Positions 34,649 to 46,627 of a stretch of 64,000 nucleotides of DNA are shown piece by piece. The number at the start of each line of letters is the position of its first letter. Within the stretch, counting starts at the first letter, position 1. The position numbers and the translations under genes were made by a program. The notes under the pieces were generated by a model. It saw nothing but the letters and a program-made list of their open reading frames with translations. It was not told the origin of the DNA and searched no databases. The DNA comes from Methanoregula boonei 6A8 (GTDB lineage: Archaea; Halobacteriota; Methanomicrobia; Methanomicrobiales; Methanospirillaceae), in the NCBI RefSeq assembly GCF_000017625.1, contig NC_009712.1:1364001-1428000 (forward strand). The letters run 5' to 3'.

Positions 34649-36496
34649 TTATTTCGAGGGGAAGAGATCGGGACGTCCCGGGATATAGAGTGCAGCCGCG
34701 TACTCCTCGGCAAACGCCGTGTCGGTCATAAGATCGATGTACACCATGTGCCGGGCCATGGACTCGGCCGCGGCCCGGCTCTTCTCCGACACAAGGCAGG
34801 CATATGCCCCCGAGAGCGACCCGTTTCCGATCATGTGGACCGTGGCTGCCGGGAACCAGGGAAGGATCCCGAACCGGACCGCCTTTTCGATGTTGGTGTA
34901 GGCCCCGAATGCACCGGCAAGGTACAGGTGCCGGACATCGCCCACCGTATGCTTGTACCGCTTGAGAAGGACCGCGATCGCCCCGCAGGCCGCGGCCTTG
35001 GAGTCCATGAGGTAATCGATGTCCTGCTGGGTAATCACGATCTCCCGCCCGGTCCCGCTCTCATCGTCCCGGACAAGGAGGTATTCTGCCCCGTCAGGCC
35101 CGGCCCGGACCCGGGGACTGGTGGAATCGAACTTGCCGGCAAAATCCAGGGCACCGGTCTCTACCAGGGCAACAGCAAGGTCCACGATCCCCGAGCCGCA
35201 GATGCCCCGGGGCGGGGCAGCGCCGATCGTGGTCCAGCGGATCTTCCCGGTTGTCGGGTCTCCCTCCACATGATCTATCGCTCCTTTCATCGCCCGCATC
35301 CCGGCCCGGATGCCGGCACCCTCGAATGCGGGGCCGGAGGCGCAGGAGACCGAGGCAGACCAGTGCCGGTCGCCAAGCACGATCTCTCCGTTTGTTCCCA
35401 GATCCACCATCAGGCTGAGGTCATCGGATTCCTGCATCCCGGCCGTGATCATATCACCTATCGCATCCCCGCCCACGAACCGGCTGACATTGGGAAGGCA
35501 GTAGACCTCAGCCGCCGGGTTGGCAAGAAGACCAAGCCCCTGTGCAGTCCGGATAAGCGGCACACGCGAGACCTCGGCATCTGCAAGCTCAAGGTAGTGG
35601 GGATCAAGGCCGCAGAGCAGGTGGTTCATCACCGTGTTTCCGGCTATAGTGAGGGCAAAGATGGCTGTGGGTTCGACACCGGCATTTAAGGCCAGGGTTG
35701 CAATCACATCGTTAATGGCAGCGGCTGCTGATTTCTGGAGCGTAGCGAGACCCGCAGGAGAGGCCGCGTACCCGATCCGGGTGAGGAGTTCCTCGCCATA
35801 GGTGATCTGGCGGTTCAGGGTGGAAGCCGTGGCAAGGATCTCGCCGGTGTCAAGCCGGGCAAGGCAGCCAACCACGGTGGTGGTCCCAAGGTCGATAGCC
35901 ACGCCGTACAGCCGGACCGGATTCTCGGCAGGCAGGAACGCAAGCACCTTGGGAGGCGAATGAAGCGTGGAGAGAAGAGCCGTCTGAGGGGTATCCGGGT
36001 CCAGGAGCGCGTGGTACTGCTCGTCGGTCATCCGGGGGCGCAGGCCGGAATAGCCGGCAAACCGGACGGACTGCGAGGCCACCGGCAGGCCTTCGATAGG
36101 AAAGAGTTCCACGAGGTACTGCATGACCATTGGTTCAACCGTGCCGGCCACAGCAGGCTTTGTTACCAGGATCTGCGGGGAGTCGATCCGGCTCTCTACC
36201 GGAATCGTAAATTCCGCATCGGAAAGCACCGTCACCTGGCAGGCAAGATGGTAGCCGGCTTCCCGTTCCTTCCGGGTGAGGCGACAGCCGGTGACGGTGT
36301 CCGGCGCGTCCGTGCAGCTGCCGGAATTCAGGATGACCCTGCACTTCCCGCAGGTTCCCTTTCCCCCGCAGATACTCTCGATAGTAAGCCCGGCAAGCAC
36401 GATTGCAGAAAGGAGCGAGGTACCGGACGGAACCGTGACCACCCGGTTCATCGGCTGGAAGATTACCCTGATCACCGGTGCATCGGGCTGTTCCAT
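34649..36496 (-). CDS. RACo-like reductive activator of corrinoid protein (ferredoxin-ASKHA fusion, DUF4445)
   Basis: 615 residues. Residues about 8-105 are a [2Fe-2S] ferredoxin with CGGKGTCGKC and a fourth Cys in HLACQ. The rest is an ASKHA ATPase-like domain (GVAIDLGTTTVVG near 215, VDLGTNGEIV near 370, GAGIRAGMRAMKGAI, GAFGAYTNI). Such proteins use ATP binding to reduce the Co(II) corrinoid of the CoFeS protein back to Co(I). Its place directly after cdhE, which encodes that corrinoid protein, points to the same role here. Ribosome-binding site GGAGGAAG. Confidence 0.88.
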   Translation of the reverse strand: MEQPDAPVIRVIFQPMNRVVTVPSGTSLLSAIVLAGLTIESICGGKGTCGKCRVILNSGSCTDAPDTVTGCRLTRKEREAGYHLACQVTVLSDAEFTIPVESRIDSPQILVTKPAVAGTVEPMVMQYLVELFPIEGLPVASQSVRFAGYSGLRPRMTDEQYHALLDPDTPQTALLSTLHSPPKVLAFLPAENPVRLYGVAIDLGTTTVVGCLARLDTGEILATASTLNRQITYGEELLTRIGYAASPAGLATLQKSAAAAINDVIATLALNAGVEPTAIFALTIAGNTVMNHLLCGLDPHYLELADAEVSRVPLIRTAQGLGLLANPAAEVYCLPNVSRFVGGDAIGDMITAGMQESDDLSLMVDLGTNGEIVLGDRHWSASVSCASGPAFEGAGIRAGMRAMKGAIDHVEGDPTTGKIRWTTIGAAPPRGICGSGIVDLAVALVETGALDFAGKFDSTSPRVRAGPDGAEYLLVRDDESGTGREIVITQQDIDYLMDSKAAACGAIAVLLKRYKHTVGDVRHLYLAGAFGAYTNIEKAVRFGILPWFPAATVHMIGNGSLSGAYACLVSEKSRAAAESMARHMVYIDLMTDTAFAEEYAAALYIPGRPDLFPSK

Positions 36497-36569: not shown

Positions 36570-38000
36570 TCATGTCTTTGGCGGCCAGTGAGCCTTTAAA
36601 AAGGCCGGGATACCGGACGAGTCTTTTGGCCCGACCAGCACATGCCAGCCGCTTGCCTCCTCGGTCTCACCGCTCAGGCGTGCGGCAAGCCCCGGGAGGA
36701 TCAGGTACCGGTGGCTGACCCGGTCGGAGATTCCGGTATCCTTGAGGACCGCAGCAATCGATTCCGCGTTGAGGTACCGTCCGGCAACAGCACTCTCCAC
36801 GCTGTTCCCGCCGGTATCTGCCACAATCAGGAAACAGTCGATCCCCGCGGCCTTGATATCGCTTTCCACGGTAAAGTAGGTCAGGGCGTAGTTTGTGGTA
36901 ATCAGCACCGGGGCATCCGGTTTGGGCGAGCCAAAAATTTTGATGCCGGTATCAACCGAGACTGGTTTTCGCGGATCGGTATAGATGTTAAAGCGCCAGA
37001 TCAGCTGGGGGAGGAGAACCCATCCCTCAAGGGAATGGAGGATCAGGAGATCTGCATACCGGGAGAGGAGCATCGATGCAGCGCACGCCTCCTTCCACTG
37101 GATCAGCTCGTGCGAGATCTCGGGGGAGAGCCACGCGGTAATCGGGGTGCCAAGAAGGGGATAGCCCAGAAGATCGTCGCCATCGGCAAAGACCGCACGG
37201 CGGATCTGCGAGAAGAGATGAATCGTGCCCGAGAGGCCGGGCTCGACTGAGGTCCCCGGGTCAAGCACGAGATCGGTCACCCCGTAGGCCACAAGCGTCT
37301 TTACCAGTGAGCGCAGAAGTGCGATATCATGGGGGGCCGAGACCACAAGCGGGCAGGCGTACCGCAGGGCAAGCTCTGCCATCTCCTTCCAGTTGTCCCT
37401 GGTGGCTGCATAGAGAAGCGGGCGGCGCTCGCGGATATGGGCAAGGCCTGCCGCCATGATCGCAGCATCGTAAGTACAGAGGATGAGAGGAAGATCGGTC
37501 TGTGAGGCAACTGCGGTTACGGCTGCGGCAAAGGCAGCCGGGTCATGCCGGGTCGAACGGATCGCAATTGCATCCAGCCGGAGCTCGCGCCCGATGTAGT
37601 TGTAGGAGAACTCCGAAATTGCCTTTACCCGGGCATCCCGCTCCTCATCAGAAAGATCATCAGAGATATCCAGGGCAATCGGGGTCGGGTTGTGGTAGGT
37701 GAACTCGTGGCGGTACAGCACGTACTTCCCGCCCAGTTTCATGGCCCGTTCCCCGGTCCCGACATGAACGGTCCTGACCGGTGGGGCCATGAGGTTTGAG
37801 AGATTCTCAAAATTGGCCCGGTACTCCTCTTTGGTGACCGGCGGGCAGTTATCCACGGCAAGCTCACCGTTTACCACCTTTGTGGCAAAGGCCATGCAGT
37901 TGGCCTCCCCGCATTCCCTGCAGTTGGTCTTGGGGAGGAGCTTGTACACGTCAATCGGGCTGATCTCCTTGATCGTCTTTCTTGGTTCGCGTTCCGACAT
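36570..38000 (-). CDS. cdhE: Acetyl-CoA decarbonylase/synthase gamma subunit (corrinoid/FeS protein, large)
   Basis: 476 residues. The N-terminal [4Fe-4S] domain has CRECGEANC and a further Cys in DNCPP; the body is a TIM-barrel/corrinoid part. With CdhD it accepts the methyl group from tetrahydrosarcinapterin on its cobalt and passes it to CdhC. Ribosome-binding site GGGAGGAG. It starts 11 bases after cdhD stops. Length is as expected for the family. Confidence 0.95.
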   Translation of the reverse strand: MSEREPRKTIKEISPIDVYKLLPKTNCRECGEANCMAFATKVVNGELAVDNCPPVTKEEYRANFENLSNLMAPPVRTVHVGTGERAMKLGGKYVLYRHEFTYHNPTPIALDISDDLSDEERDARVKAISEFSYNYIGRELRLDAIAIRSTRHDPAAFAAAVTAVASQTDLPLILCTYDAAIMAAGLAHIRERRPLLYAATRDNWKEMAELALRYACPLVVSAPHDIALLRSLVKTLVAYGVTDLVLDPGTSVEPGLSGTIHLFSQIRRAVFADGDDLLGYPLLGTPITAWLSPEISHELIQWKEACAASMLLSRYADLLILHSLEGWVLLPQLIWRFNIYTDPRKPVSVDTGIKIFGSPKPDAPVLITTNYALTYFTVESDIKAAGIDCFLIVADTGGNSVESAVAGRYLNAESIAAVLKDTGISDRVSHRYLILPGLAARLSGETEEASGWHVLVGPKDSSGIPAFLKAHWPPKT

Positions 38001-38011
38001 CGTGCTCCTCC

Positions 38012-39247
38012 CTAGATCTTCATGGTAGCCCAGCGGGCCACATCACCCGGCACCGGCGCGTCTTTCTCGGCAAACATCAGGATCGTATCCTTGCAGGTCC
38101 GGATTGCGGCCGGATGCATCATCATGAAGATGTCCACCCCGGCAAGGAGGAGCGTGAGCGCATTTATCGTCTCCCAGAGAGGGCCACGCAGTCCCCGCGA
38201 ACCGTACTTCCTGTCCATCTTCATCCATGCCTCGCGGGCCGCCCATGCGTTCGTGGATGCAGAGATGGTGGGGTGCTGGAGCTCGGTATCCCCCATCAGG
38301 GCAGCGTGCCGGGCCCGCTCGTGGATGGTAAACGAATACTCAAGGCCGTACCCGAGGGCAACGGTGGTGAGGTCCATCACAATGTCCTCGGGCGGGAGAT
38401 ACTCGTAGAGCCGGCGGTTGAGCTCCTTTGCCTTGTTGAGCTCAAGGCCGGTAAAACCGAGCACCGCGTGGTTGTGCTCCTTTGCCGCCCGGGCCACAAC
38501 ATCGAGCGTCTTTGTCTCGGTCATACCGAGCGTGACGGAGTTCAAGAGCAGCCGCTCGCCATCGGCCACCTCAGCTACCCTGCTAAAGACCTGTGCATCC
38601 TTCTTTGGGTCACCGCACCCGCCAATGATAAGCGGAACGTCAACGGCCTGGAGCACCTCCTCAACCGTCTTAGCCGCTGCCGCAGGAGAAGCATCCCGGA
38701 TGAGCGGATCGGTGGACATGAGGTGCACAGTGACCATATCCGCGCCATACTTCTTCACGTTCATCTTTGCCCATTCGGCAGGATCCCCCATGACGTCCTT
38801 GACGTTCTCCATGAGCACCCGCGGGAGCTGGGTCTCCATGTCAAAGACATCGAGTGCGAAGACGGGCGGATGCGGCGCGGGGTGATCGGCGCTAACAAAG
38901 GGAGGATAGGTCGATCCCCCGATAACAAGTGTCTTGCTCCGGCTGCCTCCATCGGCCTTTGTTGCACCCAGTTTCACCTCGTGGATCCTGCCCGCGAACT
39001 CCTCATCGTGCGGGACAAACGTCTCTGCAAAAAGTGAGGCCGGTTTCCGGGGAACGGCGGGCAGGCCCGGGGATGCGGCAGGAATGCCGGCGGGGATCCA
39101 GAACTCGAGGTCGCCCACCTCCATGGAGAAGTTCTCCAGTTCAAGGCGCTCCTTACCGGAGAGCAGGGATAGGAGCCGGGAGATCACTTCCTGGCCTGCC
39201 TGCGGTTCCGGCACCATCAGATCCTTACGCGGGTTCTTTTCCGGCAT
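38012..39247 (-). CDS. cdhD: Acetyl-CoA decarbonylase/synthase delta subunit (corrinoid/FeS protein, small)
   Basis: 411 residues with the TIM-barrel core of CoFeSP small subunits (LVIGGSTYPPFV, PLIIGGCGDPKKDAQVF and a C-terminal MMHPAAI). It forms a heterodimer with CdhE for methyl transfer. It starts 3 bases after cdhC stops, in a tightly packed operon. Confidence 0.94.
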   Translation of the reverse strand: MPEKNPRKDLMVPEPQAGQEVISRLLSLLSGKERLELENFSMEVGDLEFWIPAGIPAASPGLPAVPRKPASLFAETFVPHDEEFAGRIHEVKLGATKADGGSRSKTLVIGGSTYPPFVSADHPAPHPPVFALDVFDMETQLPRVLMENVKDVMGDPAEWAKMNVKKYGADMVTVHLMSTDPLIRDASPAAAAKTVEEVLQAVDVPLIIGGCGDPKKDAQVFSRVAEVADGERLLLNSVTLGMTETKTLDVVARAAKEHNHAVLGFTGLELNKAKELNRRLYEYLPPEDIVMDLTTVALGYGLEYSFTIHERARHAALMGDTELQHPTISASTNAWAAREAWMKMDRKYGSRGLRGPLWETINALTLLLAGVDIFMMMHPAAIRTCKDTILMFAEKDAPVPGDVARWATMKI

Positions 39248-39250
39248 CCC

Positions 39251-40624
39251 TTATGCACCTTCCCCGGGTTTTTTGGGCCGGATCGGCTCGATAATGACCC
39301 GGTCCGCGGTGATCTTCGCGTTCTTGAAGATGATCTTGAATCCCCCCGCCATCACCGGGAAATCCCCGCCGGAGAAGACCTGCACGGCACCATTTGTCTC
39401 CTCTGCAGGCACGAGCTCTTCTGCCTTCCACCGTTCGGTGACCGGGTGGGACTTGCCGGAAAGGAAGTCGCGGAGTTCGCTTACCGTCTGGACATCCTTC
39501 TCGGTTGCGATCCGGCTAAAGAGATCTGTGGGGATAAATGCCCGCATCTGCTCCTTGAGCTCGGCAGGCATCCAGACTACCCTGGCATATCCCCCGTCCG
39601 CGGCAAGGAACCGGGGGGAACGCAGGTACTCAAGCGAGATCCCGTGGAACCCGTCCACCTGCCTGCCCCCGGCAGTAGAATCCGCCATGGTGGAGAAGGG
39701 CAGACCGTTCACCGTTACGTCCCCATAGCCCCTCATAACGATCCCAAAGCCCTCAACCTCGGGAATGTAGAACGCGATCCCTTCAAAGCAGCCGCAGGAA
39801 GTATGCGGGCAGGCAAAGGCGCTGTACAGGAAGATCCGGCTCACGGTGCCAAGCGAGCGTTTCCTTGCGCTCTCATTGATCCCGGTGTACTCGCCTTTTA
39901 CAGGGTCAACGCACTCTCCTTTGCTGATGGGAAAGATCGGGCCCTTGGGATCGATCCGGGCTGCTGCCCGCCCGTCAAACCAGCTGATGGCCCCGCAGTT
40001 TGCGTACCGCTGGGGCGTGATCACGCAGACGTGGCTTGGCGCAAACGACTGGCAGAGGGCGCAGCCATAAAAGACATCCACGTCGTCGTCGGTGAGCCCC
40101 CGGGCCCGGGCATCGCGTGCCTCATACGAGGCCATTGCCTCGGCGTACCGGGCAGAGATTGCCTCTTTGTCGGTAAAGAATGTGACCTGGATCTTCTCGA
40201 TAATCGGAAGCTCATTTTTGAGGAGGTCAATGAGGACTTTTCCCACGTGCGTAAGGGAGGTGAGTCCTTTTGCATAGGCTTTTTTGGATACCCGCACCCA
40301 GATATCGTAGCGCTGGTTGAGGTGCATGAAGCCTTCGACATAGTTGGTGTACTCGTGGATCCGGCGCTCGATCACGCCTTCGATATCCTCTTCGAGTTGG
40401 GGGCCCGCAATCTCGACAAGGATACCGAGCGGGAACTTTCCGCCCTCTTCCATGGCAGAAAGGTCCGGGCCGACAACCGTGATCGCCCCATCGCGGATCT
40501 CCCCGGGCTTTCGCACTTTTACCAGCTCGAACTTCTTTTCCACTGAGGGGCCACCGAGCTCGACATGCATGTCGTTTTTCCGGATCCTCTCACCCACGTG
40601 GACAAGCCCGACATCCACCGGCAT
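39251..40624 (-). CDS. cdhC: Acetyl-CoA decarbonylase/synthase beta subunit (acetyl-CoA synthase, A-cluster)
   Basis: About 457 residues from ATG 40624, chosen because a GCAGGTG site precedes it; a GTG at 40636 overlaps the cdhB stop. It joins CO, a methyl group and CoA to acetyl-CoA on a Ni-Fe-S A-cluster. Cysteine blocks that could bind this cluster are GCALCQSF, RYANCGAISW and ACPHTSCGCFEG. In a hydrogenotrophic methanogen it mainly serves carbon assimilation. Confidence 0.95.
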   Translation of the reverse strand: MPVDVGLVHVGERIRKNDMHVELGGPSVEKKFELVKVRKPGEIRDGAITVVGPDLSAMEEGGKFPLGILVEIAGPQLEEDIEGVIERRIHEYTNYVEGFMHLNQRYDIWVRVSKKAYAKGLTSLTHVGKVLIDLLKNELPIIEKIQVTFFTDKEAISARYAEAMASYEARDARARGLTDDDVDVFYGCALCQSFAPSHVCVITPQRYANCGAISWFDGRAAARIDPKGPIFPISKGECVDPVKGEYTGINESARKRSLGTVSRIFLYSAFACPHTSCGCFEGIAFYIPEVEGFGIVMRGYGDVTVNGLPFSTMADSTAGGRQVDGFHGISLEYLRSPRFLAADGGYARVVWMPAELKEQMRAFIPTDLFSRIATEKDVQTVSELRDFLSGKSHPVTERWKAEELVPAEETNGAVQVFSGGDFPVMAGGFKIIFKNAKITADRVIIEPIRPKKPGEGA

Positions 40625-40628
40625 ATTT

Positions 40629-41183
40629 TCAAACACCTGCCGCGCCTCCCGTGGTTTCTTCGATTATGGCCTCAAGGTTCTCCTGCCAGTCCTTTTCGGA
40701 GAGGTTGGCAAACGACCAGGTGGCATTGGGCTGGTATTTGTTGTCCAGCGTGATCGTCCTTGTATGCGGGGCAAAGTGCTTGAGCCCGGAAAGAAGTGTC
40801 CAGGCCATGGGATACGGGAGGCCGGCGATGATGGCAAGATCACAGGGGCCCTTTCCCCCCGGCCCTTCCCAGACAGGATCCGCGATCCTCTGGCCGGCCA
40901 CAACTGCCGGTAAGATAAGGGCATTCATGTATCCCCTCTCTACGAGGGCCCGGTTAACGTTCCCGGTGGCAATGACCGGGATCCGGTACGCCCGGGCAAG
41001 CACGAGCAGGTAATCAACAAGCTTCCGGTCCCCGATCTCTGCTGATGCAGATTGGTTCCCAAGCAGGAGCACCGGTGACCGGGCGCGGCCGATCACGGCT
41101 TTTGCCATGGCCGGCTTGGTGATCACGGTAGCTTTCTTCGGGCCGCCCACCTCGGCTGTCTGCCAGGGATCTGCTGAACTCAT
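40629..41183 (-). CDS. cdhB: Acetyl-CoA decarbonylase/synthase epsilon subunit
   Basis: 184 residues, a Rossmann-like protein (DYLLVLARAYRIPVIATGN) that binds the alpha subunit to form the CO dehydrogenase component. Its start overlaps the cdhA stop by 4 bases (ATGA). Slightly longer than the usual about 170 residues. Confidence 0.92.
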   Translation of the reverse strand: MSSADPWQTAEVGGPKKATVITKPAMAKAVIGRARSPVLLLGNQSASAEIGDRKLVDYLLVLARAYRIPVIATGNVNRALVERGYMNALILPAVVAGQRIADPVWEGPGGKGPCDLAIIAGLPYPMAWTLLSGLKHFAPHTRTITLDNKYQPNATWSFANLSEKDWQENLEAIIEETTGGAAGV

Positions 41184-43540
41184 AGCCGGCCCTCCCCGGG
41201 CATATCACGGGTAAGCAGGGTCGGGTCCGGTATGGGCTGTTCCTTCCAGCCGGACTGGGAAAGAATACCCGTGATCTCACCTTTGAGGGTCACAGGAATA
41301 TCTGCGGTAGTGCGGATATAGCGCGGGATGTCTTCCGGCAATGCGCCGTGGCTGCGCTGGTACAGGTCAATGTAGTGCGTGAGCTTCATTGCCCGGCCCC
41401 GGGTCGTGTCATTGGGCCGCATGCAGAGCTTTGCCACAAGCACCATTGCTTCTTCTTTTGTCTCGGCGGCCACAAAGAGATGCTCCGGGGCCGGGCCGGC
41501 ATAGACTTTCTCGCCGGTCCGCTGGTCGTGAACATACCAGTCCTCATCGCGGTCAGCCCGGCCAAGGAGCATCCGGCGGTACTTGGTGCCATGGGGGCCG
41601 ACCACCACAGGGATCCCAAGCCGCCAGAACCCGCTTGCGATTGCCGCCGCCTTCTGGGACATCGCACCCCACGCAACACCTACCGCACCGACACGGTTGT
41701 GGACATAGTCGGCGATCTCGGCATAGTTCCCGCGCAGGTTGCGTCGGGCAAAGATGCTTGCGATCTTGATGGTTGCCCCGGCGATATGGGCGTTTGCGAC
41801 ACAGGAACCGACATTCACGATCCCTCCTGCAGTAAAACTGCCCGGGAACTGCTCATAGGGGGTCTTTCCCTCCTCGTCCCGGTACATCCCAATCGACATC
41901 GCGGCACAGCCCGAGGTGCAGACAATGTACCGGCGCTTTGCAAACTCCACGCTCATTTCGGCGATTTCTTTTCCGCCGTTTGCGAAATTGGAGCAGCCGA
42001 CAAATGCCACAACGCCCGGGATCTCCCCGAGAACGATGGGCCCGCCAACGTTGCGGATCTCGACATCCTGAATAGCGCCCCGCCCAGTCCGGATCACGAA
42101 CTTCTCGTTTTTGATCTTCTCTGCGGCTGCAGCCACGATCAGCGAATGGACCGGGATATCCTGCGTGCAGGCATGCTCGCACCGCCCGCATCCAACACAG
42201 GTCTCGTACAGAAGAGAAAGAAGCGAGAGGTCGCCTTCCGCCGCAGCTTTCATACCTTGCGGGATAGCAAGGTCGTTGGGGCAGGCCCGCTGGCAGAGCC
42301 GGCACCGGGTACAGTCAGCAGCCTTTTCGCGGACTGCCTCCGGTGAAAGGGCAGTGGAGGTTTTCCTCCGTGCCGGCATCACGGTCCGGGCCACCCGGAC
42401 TGCCACCTCGCCGGCCTTTTCCGAATCAAGGATCAGGGCACCCTTGGCCCGGCCTGACGAGAGATCGGCAACTATGGCATCCACCGGGTCACGGGTCCGG
42501 TCGGGAAGGCCCATGCAGTTCTTATCAGATGTGGCAATAAAGGGCGTGCCGGCAGCCACAGCCTCGTCAAACGCATCGGTCCGGACGCACTGCTCATCTA
42601 CGACGATCACATCGGGAATCCCACTCCGGATGTACCGTAGCTGCCAGGACATGGGGCCGATGATCTTTGCCCGCGGAGAGTAGCGGGTGGCATCAACCGA
42701 GGTGCAGCAGATGCCGGTCACCTCCACCTGGTCGGTAAGGTTCTCCTCCGCAAGGTAATCGATAATGGCAACCGCGGGCGGAACATTATGGCCGATGACC
42801 AGGATCACCGGTTTTGTGGTCTCAACTGTTCCCATGCCGAGCGCCGCAAGTGGTGCATCGGGATCGGCTTTCGGGTAACCGAGCGCCGAGATCTGCGCAA
42901 GGTCTGCTACCTCCATGCCCACCTGGTCGATCATGCCGGCGTGGAGCACCTTGCTCTCGAAATCCAGGTATTTGCCCTCCTGCCCGGTATGGGTTGCCGC
43001 AAGAAGCGACGTGATCTGGCTCTCGCAGTAATCTAGGACGGTTTCAAGATCCGCAAGGATCTGCGGCTTTTCCCCGCAGACAAGCCGGATGACAGGTGCC
43101 TCCACCCCAATCGCATTCCCGCCGGGATCAATTTCGCAGTCGCGACCCGAACGCTTGATGGCATAGGTCACGAGCTCACGCGCATGGCTCGTGTGGGTGG
43201 CGGCACCGATGCACGCAGTAAGGAGCACGGTCCGGGCCTGCTGGGCCGGCATCGAGATCCCACAGGCTCCTTTTTTGGTGCCGGTAAGATCGCACTTGCC
43301 GTAGGTGCACAGGCAGCAGAGATCGCAAAAGGGCATGTAGAACGGTTGGTACCGGGAGAGGAGTGTATGGTCCCACTCACGAAGGGTGGCAAGTGAAGGG
43401 TATGGCGTCGGGCCTTTTTCTTCAGCCCAGTCCCCGGCAGAAAGTTTCCCGATAGAAACCGAGAGGTCCCGGATCCGGCCAAAACCGGCATCCAGTTCCT
43501 TTATCGACAAAGAGACTTTCTTTTCCGTCACCAGCAGCAC
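41180..43540 (-). CDS. cdhA: Acetyl-CoA decarbonylase/synthase alpha subunit (nickel CO dehydrogenase)
   Basis: 786 residues from GTG 43540; a second GTG at 43531 is also possible. It interconverts CO2 and CO on a Ni-Fe-S C-cluster. An N-terminal cysteine group is CDLCCLCTYGKC, and two ferredoxin-type clusters are CTRCRLCQRACP and CVGCGRCEHACT around 405-455, a feature of the archaeal alpha subunit. C-cluster candidates are VAFVGCSNFANGG, GCAAMS and NVGSCVANAHIAG in the second half. It is the first gene of the operon behind a TATA box with a dyad. Confidence 0.95.
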   Translation of the reverse strand: MLLVTEKKVSLSIKELDAGFGRIRDLSVSIGKLSAGDWAEEKGPTPYPSLATLREWDHTLLSRYQPFYMPFCDLCCLCTYGKCDLTGTKKGACGISMPAQQARTVLLTACIGAATHTSHARELVTYAIKRSGRDCEIDPGGNAIGVEAPVIRLVCGEKPQILADLETVLDYCESQITSLLAATHTGQEGKYLDFESKVLHAGMIDQVGMEVADLAQISALGYPKADPDAPLAALGMGTVETTKPVILVIGHNVPPAVAIIDYLAEENLTDQVEVTGICCTSVDATRYSPRAKIIGPMSWQLRYIRSGIPDVIVVDEQCVRTDAFDEAVAAGTPFIATSDKNCMGLPDRTRDPVDAIVADLSSGRAKGALILDSEKAGEVAVRVARTVMPARRKTSTALSPEAVREKAADCTRCRLCQRACPNDLAIPQGMKAAAEGDLSLLSLLYETCVGCGRCEHACTQDIPVHSLIVAAAAEKIKNEKFVIRTGRGAIQDVEIRNVGGPIVLGEIPGVVAFVGCSNFANGGKEIAEMSVEFAKRRYIVCTSGCAAMSIGMYRDEEGKTPYEQFPGSFTAGGIVNVGSCVANAHIAGATIKIASIFARRNLRGNYAEIADYVHNRVGAVGVAWGAMSQKAAAIASGFWRLGIPVVVGPHGTKYRRMLLGRADRDEDWYVHDQRTGEKVYAGPAPEHLFVAAETKEEAMVLVAKLCMRPNDTTRGRAMKLTHYIDLYQRSHGALPEDIPRYIRTTADIPVTLKGEITGILSQSGWKEQPIPDPTLLTRDMPGEGRL

Positions 43541-43578: not shown

Positions 43579-43607
43579 TATATATGTACACGTACAGGTT
43601 TTTAACC
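43579..43607 (-). promoter_or_regulatory. cdhA promoter: TATA box with upstream GGTT/AACC dyad
   Basis: Minus-strand TATA ATATATA at 43579-43585, about 40 bases before the cdhA GTG, implying a leader of about 15-20 bases. A dyad GGTT-TTT-AACC lies at 43597-43607, 11 bases upstream of the TATA box. The cooC promoter carries a longer version of this dyad at nearly the same distance. Confidence 0.5.
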
Positions 43608-43645
43608 AAATCGACCGGGATACCAAAGGTACGGGTACCGGGGGA

Positions 43646-44425
43646 TCACCCTGAACCGGGTTTCCCGTAACCGGCTCGTTCCATCAGGGTACAGACCGAT
43701 CGGTATCCCGGGGAATCCACCGGCAGGTCAAGGAGCGGCCGGCCTGCAATGACCGATTCCTGCACCAGGGGATCGAACGCAATCTTTCCCAGGTACTCCC
43801 GCCCGGTCTCCTCTTCTGCCCTTGCACCAAGCTCGGCAGGGAAAAGGCTTCCGCCCACCACAAAGAAGCGGTCGAACGCGATCCCGACTTCCCGTGCGAT
43901 CCGGTCGGCACGTTTGACATGGAGGAAGGATTTGTGGGACGGCCCCAGCACATCGAAGAGATCACTCACGCTGGCCGTCACCTTACGGTTGAGGTGTTCG
44001 AGGCCGGCAGGAGAATCGACCAGCACGCACCGGTAGTTTTTTGCAAGCGTTGAGAGCGCCCCTTTGAGCGCTGCATCCGGCATGCAGTAACAACCCTCGA
44101 TCCACTTGGTCCCCACAGCGATAAGGTCAAAATGCTCACTCTCATACAGCCCGTCCCGGAGCACCCGGCTCTCGATCCTTTCTGTGGGGGCGATACCCGT
44201 CATCGTCCCGCCCTTTTTAATGAAGGTCTCGGTCACGAGCTCGGCAATCGTCTTTACCCCTTCGCGTTCGAGATCAACGCCCACCATCTCGGCAAGGTTC
44301 TGGTCAGGGTCGAGATCGATGAGGAGAAGCGGGGCCTCTTCCTGCTCAAGGAAAAATTTGGTCTGCAGTGCGACAAAACTTGTCTTACCGGTACCCCCCC
44401 GGCCCATGGTTACCAGTGTCTTCAT
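43646..44425 (-). CDS. CooC/MinD-type ATPase with altered signature lysine
   Basis: 259 residues with P-loop GRGGTGKT at residues 8-15. CooC proteins bind nickel and help load it into CO dehydrogenase; the position of the gene just ahead of cdhA supports that. The usual deviant Walker signature is KGGxGK, but here the first Lys is Arg9. No CooC-type CxC nickel motif is visible; the only close Cys pair is in GCYCMPDA. Its start overlaps the stop of the second ATPase gene by 4 bases. Confidence 0.8.
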   Translation of the reverse strand: MKTLVTMGRGGTGKTSFVALQTKFFLEQEEAPLLLIDLDPDQNLAEMVGVDLEREGVKTIAELVTETFIKKGGTMTGIAPTERIESRVLRDGLYESEHFDLIAVGTKWIEGCYCMPDAALKGALSTLAKNYRCVLVDSPAGLEHLNRKVTASVSDLFDVLGPSHKSFLHVKRADRIAREVGIAFDRFFVVGGSLFPAELGARAEEETGREYLGKIAFDPLVQESVIAGRPLLDLPVDSPGYRSVCTLMERAGYGKPGSG

Positions 44426-45219
44426 GGGTGTTCTTCCTGATCGGCCATTTCCCGGCTGGTCTCTGAAAGGATCCCGGCGATGGCATCAAGCGCTGCCGAG
44501 CCTTTGAGCGCAGCGACTGCTTCCCCGGCTACACCTGCCCGCGTCACCGTCGGGTCAAACGGGATCATACCAGGAACGGGAAGATTCCGGGACCGGGCAA
44601 AATCCCGGATAACCCTATCCTGCGCCGGATCCTGGATCCGGTTTCCCACCAGTTCCACCCGGGGGATACCGGCATCCCGTGCCATCTGTGCAATCTTCCC
44701 GGCAATGGCAAGCGACTGCCGGTGGGCATCGCTTACCACGAGCATCACATCCACGTTCTCTGCAGTTCCCCGCCCGATATGCTCAACACCGGCTTCCATA
44801 TCAAGGATAACAACTTCGCGGTGCTCCACCAGCAGGTGGCGCAGCAGGGCGCGGACCACGCTGTTTGCCGGGCAGGTGCACCCGGCACCCATCGAAGTCA
44901 CGGTGCCCATGACCAGCAGGTGCGGCCCGGCAGGGGTGGGGACGGCATACTTTGTTACTATATCATTCACAGAAAAATTCAGCGCATACACGCCGGGATA
45001 GGATGTCCCGGTCTTTGCGGCGATGAGATCCGCGTTCTTCGAGACCGGGATAATGGCATCCGCTTCGCGTGGGGAGAGGCCGAGCAGGAAGGCAAGGTTG
45101 GGCGCAGAGTCTGCATCCAAGGCGAGGGTTGTATGCCCGGCGCGGGCAAAAAGGAAGGCCAGACTCCCGGCGAGAAGTGTCTTTCCCGACCCGCCTTTCC
45201 CTGCCACTGCGATCTTCAT
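44422..45219 (-). CDS. cooC: CooC-like nickel-inserting ATPase
   Basis: 265 residues from ATG 45219 (MKIAVAGKGG); the frame is open to 45609 but nothing upstream is conserved. P-loop GKGGSGKT at 7-14, LALDADSAPNL, and the CooC-type cysteine pair GAGCTCPAN near residue 112 that can bind Ni. It should mature the nickel sites of CdhA and perhaps CdhC. It is the first gene of the ATPase pair, transcribed toward cdhA. Confidence 0.88.
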   Translation of the reverse strand: MKIAVAGKGGSGKTLLAGSLAFLFARAGHTTLALDADSAPNLAFLLGLSPREADAIIPVSKNADLIAAKTGTSYPGVYALNFSVNDIVTKYAVPTPAGPHLLVMGTVTSMGAGCTCPANSVVRALLRHLLVEHREVVILDMEAGVEHIGRGTAENVDVMLVVSDAHRQSLAIAGKIAQMARDAGIPRVELVGNRIQDPAQDRVIRDFARSRNLPVPGMIPFDPTVTRAGVAGEAVAALKGSAALDAIAGILSETSREMADQEEHP

Positions 45220-45240
45220 CCCGCACCACACCCTGTTTTT

Positions 45241-45274
45241 GATATATTGGCAGAACCGGTTTAAGAAACCGGTT
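45241..45274 (-). promoter_or_regulatory. cooC promoter: TATA box with 21-bp dyad
   Basis: Minus-strand TATA (AATATATC) at 45241-45248. Directly upstream is a perfect inverted repeat AACCGGTTT-AAG-AAACCGGTT at 45254-45274. The inner core GGTTTAAGAAACC starts 10 bases from the TATA box. Such a site next to the TATA/BRE is a likely operator or activator site. The start site would fall very close to the cooC ATG, so the transcript may be almost leaderless. Confidence 0.6.
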
Positions 45275-45421: not shown

Positions 45422-46627
45422 ATGGCTGAACTTCGGATTGTCGGGACTGCACACGTTTCCCAGAAAAGTGTTGATGAGGTGAAAGCCGCAATCGAGGAGT
45501 TCCGGCCGGACATTGTTGCAATAGAACTGGATCCTGCCCGGTTTGCGGCCCTCAAGAAACAGGCAAAGGACCCGACCGTGGAGGATGTCCTTGAAGTCAA
45601 GAACTTCAACTCGCTTCTTGTCCAGTGGCTCCTCTCCTACCTCCAGCGCAAGATCGGCGTCGATGTTGGTGTTGAGCCCGGGGCCGAGATGAAGGCTGCC
45701 ATTACTGAAGCAGAAAGCCGCAATATCCCGGTTGCCCTCGTGGACCGCGACATCCGCCTTACTCTGCTCCGGTTCTGGAAATCCATGGGGGTAATCGAGA
45801 AGATCAAGATGTTTTTTGCATTAATCTTCTCGATTGCCGAAGTGGACAAGGGAGAACAGATCGATATCGAATCTCTCAAGGACCAGGATATCATCGATGC
45901 TGTCATGGAGGAGTTTCACCGGTTTTCGCCCAACGGGGCCCATGCGCTGATTGACGAGCGGGATGCGTTCATCGCCCACCAGCTGGTCATTCTCAAGGCG
46001 CAGAGACCGGATGCCCGCATCCTTGCCATAGTCGGTGCCGGCCACCGCCAGGGCATTACGAATTATGTCGAGAAACCGCAGACCCTGCCGCCGTTTGATT
46101 CACTCATTAAAGAGCCAAAATCCTTTCCCTGGGCAAAAATTTTCGGTTTTGCAGTCACCGGGCTCTTTGCATTCCTGCTTGCCGCGATTGCATTTTCTGG
46201 CGTAGGCTGGACAGTACTCCTGTACGCACTCCTCTTCTGGGTAATCATTCACGGGGTGCTTGCCGCGGTATTTACCCTCATTGCCGGCGGCCATCCCTAT
46301 TCTGCCCTAACCTGTTTTGCCGTGGCGTGGATGACATCACTTAACCCGCTGCTCCATGCCGGGTGGTTTGCCGCATACGTTGAGGCAAAGGTCAGGAAGC
46401 CGCCGGTTTCGGATTTCCGGAAGATCTATGAGACAGAGTCATTGCGGGAGATGGCACGCATACCGCTCTTTAAAGTCGTACTCGTGGCAGCGCTGGCAAA
46501 CCTGGGAAGCCTGATAGGTACCGTGCTGTATTTTTTCCTTGTCTTCCCGCTGCTTCACATTGACCCGGGAACGGTGATCTCCACCGGGGTTCACAACATG
46601 TATACGTGGGTCGCCGGGCTCATTTAA
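45422..46627 (+). CDS. TraB/PrgY family membrane protein
   Basis: 401 residues. The TraB signature is present: RIVGTAHVSQKSVDEV at the N-terminus, EARF-like block DIVAIELDPARFAAL, and IVGAGHRQGI near 205. Several membrane helices follow (about 240-300 and 345-400). Relatives limit pheromone activity in bacteria or act in mitochondria; the archaeal role is unknown, possibly a membrane metalloprotease. It is divergent from the cooC operon. Confidence 0.88.
   Translation: MAELRIVGTAHVSQKSVDEVKAAIEEFRPDIVAIELDPARFAALKKQAKDPTVEDVLEVKNFNSLLVQWLLSYLQRKIGVDVGVEPGAEMKAAITEAESRNIPVALVDRDIRLTLLRFWKSMGVIEKIKMFFALIFSIAEVDKGEQIDIESLKDQDIIDAVMEEFHRFSPNGAHALIDERDAFIAHQLVILKAQRPDARILAIVGAGHRQGITNYVEKPQTLPPFDSLIKEPKSFPWAKIFGFAVTGLFAFLLAAIAFSGVGWTVLLYALLFWVIIHGVLAAVFTLIAGGHPYSALTCFAVAWMTSLNPLLHAGWFAAYVEAKVRKPPVSDFRKIYETESLREMARIPLFKVVLVAALANLGSLIGTVLYFFLVFPLLHIDPGTVISTGVHNMYTWVAGLI

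What the first reader, a model, noticed from the sequence alone, without database searches (positions are those of the whole stretch)
43579..45274. Same TATA-proximal dyad at the cooC and cdhA promoters
The cooC promoter carries a perfect 21-bp dyad AACCGGTTT-AAG-AAACCGGTT (45254-45274) directly upstream of a TATA box at 45242-45248. The cdhA promoter carries GGTT-TTT-AACC at 43597-43607, 11 bases upstream of its TATA box. The cores (GGTT-N3 or N5-AACC) and the TATA distance (about 9-11 bases) agree. A single regulator could bind both and coordinate the CO dehydrogenase/acetyl-CoA synthase genes with their nickel-loading proteins, perhaps in response to nickel, acetate or carbon state.
Basis: partly seen in the sequence, partly recalled or inferred. 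Interest (0 to 1): 0.6.

Follow-up and report, generated by a model that had tools for sequence, protein, structure and literature searches.

The report
Possible switch sites at CODH genes
In a methane-producing archaeon, two short mirror-image DNA elements next to the promoters of the carbon monoxide dehydrogenase operon and its nickel-loading genes are kept in the closest relative but not beyond, so they are plausible ordinary control sites, and it is unproven that one regulator uses both.

Summary
The sequence claims are correct. A perfect 9-3-9 dyad (45254-45274) lies 34 bp upstream of cooC, and GGTT-TTT-AACC (43597-43607) lies about 57 bp upstream of the annotated cdhA start. In the nearest relative (Methanoregula sp. 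fen_34) both elements are conserved footprints in the same gene order. The cooC element is 17/21 identical, against 41% upstream; the cdhA core is 11/11, and 20/22 with flanks, against 48% upstream. "Same dyad" goes too far. Spacers are 5 and 3, so the arms are not in the same register. The cooC symmetry decays in fen_34 (6 of 9 pairs). The elements are absent at the same place from the 26 other cooC and 26 other cdhA promoters examined, and neither genome holds a coherent set of further sites. My reading: two lineage-restricted operator-like elements at adjacent operons, most likely sites for a dimeric winged-helix regulator; one shared regulator about 30%. No evidence bears on nickel or acetate as the signal.

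The parts
45254..45274 (.). Perfect 9-3-9 dyad AACCGGTTTAAGAAACCGGTT upstream of cooC; operator-like element, conserved 17/21 in Methanoregula sp. fen_34
45241..45249 (-). The 8-bp TATA score is 7.1 bits, but it implies an almost leaderless mRNA
45259..45268 (-). Alternative cooC TATA inside the dyad (TTTCTTAAA on the minus strand, 5.2 bits; TTTATTAT in fen_34), aligned with the genus TATA TTCTTTCA
44422..45219 (-). cooC-like Ni-insertion ATPase (265 aa, CXC motif GCTC); best solved relative is CooC 3kje, E 9.6e-32
43646..44425 (-). Second CooC-like ATPase (259 aa, CXC motif GCYC), overlapping the first by 4 bp, so probably one operon; 3kje E 1.4e-11
43597..43607 (.). GGTT-N3-AACC dyad upstream of cdhA; 11/11 identical in fen_34, where it extends to CGGTT-AAA-AACCG
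43593..43614 (.). Conserved block around the cdhA dyad (20/22 identical to fen_34)
43579..43588 (-). cdhA TATA box (ACATATATAC on the minus strand, TATA score 6.4 bits), aligned with the genus TATA AACCTTAT
41180..43540 (-). cdhA, first gene of the CODH/ACS operon (start perhaps GTG at 43531, which aligns with orthologue starts)
36570..41183 (-). cdhB (40629-41183), cdhC (39251-40636), cdhD (38012-39247), cdhE (36570-38000)

Best explanation
Two operator-like elements occur at the promoters of two adjacent operons, cooC-cooC and cdhABCDE, in the lineage that holds this genome and its nearest relative. The cooC element is an inverted repeat (CCGG-N9-CCGG inside AACCGGTTT...AAACCGGTT) just upstream of, or around, the TATA box. 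The cdhA element (YGGTT-AAA-AACCK) lies about 10 bp upstream of its TATA box. Shown: the sequences, their positions, and their conservation as footprints between the two species. Inferred: a dimeric winged-helix regulator binds each site and acts on TBP/TFB recruitment, probably activating at cdhA (site upstream of a weak BRE/TATA) and either activating or repressing at cooC, where the site may overlap the TATA box. One regulator may serve both through half-site CGGTT/AACCG with variable spacing; I give that about 30%. The signal is unknown.
For: Exact dyad, single copy in the genome. Footprints: cooC element 17/21 (81%) against 61/147 upstream and 19/34 down to the ATG; cdhA core 11/11 and extended block 20/22 against 15/31 upstream. 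Synteny cooC-cooC-cdhA is kept in fen_34. In fen_34 the cdhA dyad is extended to CGGTT..AACCG, matching the cooC half-site. Chance sharing of such a dyad between a cooC and a cdhA promoter of relatives is 1 in 780 pairs. Activators upstream of the BRE/TATA are established in archaea: EarA (PMC5512572) and SurR (PMC12162507).
Against: Absent at the same position from 26 other cooC and 26 other cdhA promoters. Spacers differ by 2 bp. Three of the four substitutions in fen_34's cooC element break the symmetry (6 of 9 pairs remain, read). Further sites in both genomes lie mostly in ORFs or at unrelated genes. Only two species support the footprints, and no regulator gene is linked.
Confidence: 0.5

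Rival explanations
1. The conserved sequence is core promoter rather than operator. The AT-rich centres (TTTCTTAAA in the cooC dyad, TTAAAAA in the cdhA dyad) are the TATA boxes, and the flanking GG/CC are BRE and context, so the symmetry is incidental.
For: Genus alignment puts the cooC TATA of relatives (CCAATATTCTTTCA) over the dyad core, and fen_34 has TTTATTAT there. The dyad-internal TATA scores 5.2 bits and would give a leader of about 20 nt carrying a GGTG.
Against: For cdhA the same alignment puts the genus TATA over ACATATATAC, not over the dyad, and the dyad-internal score is only 2.7. A perfect 9-bp arm on both sides of a TATA box is not needed for promoter function.
Confidence: 0.25
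2. Chance. The cooC dyad is one of several perfect 9-bp dyads expected in 64 kb of CCGG-rich DNA, and GGTT-N3-AACC at cdhA is a short match found after the fact.
For: 7 perfect 9-bp dyads in the window against about 4 expected; CCGG is over-represented, 938 against 758 expected; not conserved beyond one relative.
Against: Both elements are better conserved than their flanks in fen_34, and both lie in the promoter zones of functionally linked operons.
Confidence: 0.25
3. Only the cooC dyad is an operator (for example of a repressor sitting on the TATA box), while the cdhA GGTT-AAA-AACC belongs to an unrelated element or to the 3' end of the cooC transcript, about 40 nt after its stop codon.
For: The spacings differ. 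GGTT dyads also occur between the second cooC gene and cdhA in three other genomes at other distances (L170 -92, L179 -127, L185 -125), and GGTT is the most frequent non-palindromic tetramer dyad there together with GCAG, 5 of 28 genomes.
Against: The cdhA stem is only 4-5 bp with no T-run after it, and its distance from TATA is kept in fen_34.
Confidence: 0.3

Closest known systems
SurR operator (Thermococcales), GTTn3AAC or GTTn3AACn5GTT (PMC12162507)
   Same: cdhA carries GTT-n3-AAC upstream of TATA, the position where SurR activates
   Different: the n5GTT extension is absent; the cooC site is GTT-n5-AAC; a Thermococcales sulfur regulator, whose presence in Methanoregula was not tested
EarA sites of the Methanococcus maripaludis fla promoter (PMC5512572)
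   Same: activator sites immediately upstream of BRE/TATA in a methanogen
   Different: four 6-bp repeats rather than a dyad; unrelated genes
TrmB-family operators and MreA (PMC4158304)
   Same: inverted repeats at the BRE/TATA; MreA affects cdh genes in Methanosarcina (PMC11218639)
   Different: TACT-N3-AGTA and TATCAC-N5-GTGATA are not present at these two sites; no motif is known for MreA
HdrR palindrome at hdrBCA of Methanosarcina barkeri (PMC11218639)
   Same: palindromic site at a methanogenesis operon promoter
   Different: other operon; its sequence is shown only in a figure that was not available
NikR operator GTATGA-N16-TCATAC (PMC7055735)
   Same: would fit a nickel hypothesis
   Different: sequence and spacing do not match

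Membership tests
Archaeal palindromic operator at BRE/TATA | inverted repeat adjacent to the core promoter | tested here: met
Archaeal palindromic operator at BRE/TATA | conserved at orthologous promoters | tested here: inconclusive
   conserved in fen_34 only; absent from the other Methanoregulaceae and Methanomicrobiales promoters examined
Archaeal palindromic operator at BRE/TATA | bound by a protein and affects transcription | not testable with these tools
   needs footprinting or a reporter
One shared operator at cooC and cdhA | same half-site with the same spacing | tested here: not met
   half-site GGTT shared, spacer 5 against 3
One shared operator at cooC and cdhA | further sites at related genes (regulon) | tested here: not met
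SurR site | GTTn3AAC with or without n5GTT at both promoters | tested here: not met
   short form at cdhA only, cooC is GTTn5AAC
NikR operator | GTATGA-N16-TCATAC | tested here: not met
   not at either site by reading the sequence
CooC ATPase | deviant Walker A (GKGG) and CXC motif, similarity to CooC1 | tested here: met
   MKIAVAGKGGSGKT, GCTC; 3kje E 9.6e-32

The most novel reading that the evidence does not exclude
A lineage-specific winged-helix regulator recognises CGGTT/AACCG half-sites with flexible spacing and co-ordinates the CODH/ACS operon with its nickel-insertion ATPases. It would be, to my knowledge, the first regulator dedicated to CODH and its maturation known in archaea.
Probability: 0.2. 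Interest if true: 0.5.

Novelty: new member of a known kind. Interest (0 to 1): 0.25.

Why it matters
As far as I know, and as far as the papers I searched show, no regulator of CODH/ACS or its Ni-insertion proteins has been mapped in hydrogenotrophic Methanomicrobiales. If the two sites share a regulator, it would show how assembly of a nickel enzyme is matched to its maturation factors. On present evidence the case is a testable lead restricted to one small lineage.

Tried and rejected
Genome-wide repeat family: rejected, the dyad is single copy. Regulon by motif search (CCGGTT-N5-AACCGG, CGGTT-N3-5-AACCG, GGTTWWWAACC, and the cooC consensus with 3 mismatches in both genomes): further sites are mostly coding or at unrelated genes, e.g. 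an aldo/keto reductase at 1308876 and an upstream site of an ABC transporter ATPase at 2081479. Known regulators NikR, SurR and TrmB: the motifs do not match. The first alignment of genus cdhA promoters (A3) used wrong strands for several loci and was redone. Papers on M. boonei regulation: nothing found.

Full report
Setting. The window lies in a single-contig genome of 2,542,943 bp. Its relatives are Methanoregula, and the size is that of Methanoregula boonei 6A8 from memory, so that name is an inference. On the minus strand run two CooC-like ATPases (44422-45219 and 43646-44425, overlapping by 4 bp), then cdhA, cdhB, cdhC, cdhD, cdhE and an AcsV-like corrinoid activator. Both ATPases carry a CXC motif, and their best solved relative is CooC 3kje (E 9.6e-32 and 1.4e-11). 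A traB-family gene diverges at 45422.

Observation. The dyad AACCGGTTT-AAG-AAACCGGTT at 45254-45274 is exact and single copy; the other matches with up to 3 mismatches that were inspected lie in ORFs. GGTT-TTT-AACC at 43597-43607 is also there. Perfect 9-bp-arm dyads with spacer 0-12 number 7 in the window against a mean of 4.0 in simulated sequence, so the dyad alone is no proof of function. GGTT-N3-5-AACC occurs 119 times in the genome. In a null made of 780 mismatched cooC/cdhA promoter pairs of relatives, one pair shared any non-palindromic 4-bp dyad with spacer 3-5 within 90 bp.

Nearest relative. The cooC element reads AACCGGTTTATTATGCCGGAT: 17/21 identical, against 61/147 upstream and 19/34 between element and ATG. 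The cdhA element reads CGGTTAAAAACCGG: core 11/11 and 43593-43614 20/22, against 15/31 just upstream. Both are therefore phylogenetic footprints. Symmetry at cooC is partly lost (6 of 9 pairs); at cdhA it is extended.

Other relatives. Among 28 cooC promoters analysed (L063 and L084 left out), a GGTT-N3-5-AACC dyad or a CCGG-N9-CCGG pair at this position is found only in these two species; L078 has an unrelated CCGG pair at -120. Among 28 cdhA promoters the dyad is at -70 only in these two. Three others have a GGTT dyad further upstream (L170 -92, L179 -127, L185 -125), and GGTT is, with GCAG, the commonest non-palindromic tetramer dyad there.

Core promoter. A 14-bp BRE/TATA matrix was learned from 27 tRNA promoters of this genome (consensus CGCAACATTTATAA). 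It finds strong boxes at other Methanoregula cdhA promoters (CGATAACCTTATTT 9.2, CAATACACTTATTT 11.2). In this genome both promoters are weak. The claimed equal distance of dyad and TATA at both promoters is therefore not established.

Regulon. Searches of both genomes with several forms of the motif gave mostly coding sites and a few unrelated promoters. Known archaeal or nickel regulators do not fit: SurR sites are GTTn3AAC(n5GTT), TrmB sites TACT-N3-AGTA or TATCAC-N5-GTGATA, NikR GTATGA-N16-TCATAC. MreA and HdrR act on methanogenesis genes of Methanosarcina, but no motif could be compared.

Mechanism. Most likely each element is an operator for a dimeric winged-helix protein near the BRE/TATA, where archaeal activators recruit TBP or TFB at weak promoters (PMC5512572, PMC12162507). 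The elements and their conservation in two species are shown; binding, direction of control, a shared protein and the signal are inferred or unknown. I give 0.5 to two functional operator-like elements and about 0.3 to one shared regulator.

Verdict. Observation confirmed, interpretation partly supported, an ordinary kind of feature restricted to a small lineage.

Noticed in passing
L166, L168, L172, L173, L178, L180, L184, L186 (cdhA upstream, 100 bp): Other Methanoregula share a strongly conserved cdhA core promoter, close to CGATAACCTTATnTnACyCATCCCTCAATGTATAG, which this genome and fen_34 lack.
   Followed up: partly
L064, L065, L070, L073, L078, L083 (cooC upstream): cooC promoters of several relatives share a block close to CCAATAyTCTTTyA; in L070, L073, L078 and L083 it is followed about 10 bp later by ATAACGTC.
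   Followed up: partly
L170, about 94 bp upstream of cdhA: Perfect CCGGTT-TTTTC-AACCGG dyad (6-bp arms, N5 spacing as at cooC of the window) in another Methanoregula.
   Followed up: no
L235 1500-1570 (genome position about 1308875-1308945): CCGGTTCTGTAACCGG dyad and a TetR-like palindrome TGACTGACCAGTCA upstream of an aldo/keto reductase with a 4Fe-4S domain.
   Followed up: no
34649-36496, minus strand: AcsV-like corrinoid activation protein (615 aa; E 4.7e-125 but below the curated cut-off) directly downstream of cdhE.
   Followed up: no
43529-43540: The annotated cdhA start (GTG 43540) is three codons upstream of the GTG that aligns with starts in relatives (43531).
   Followed up: partly
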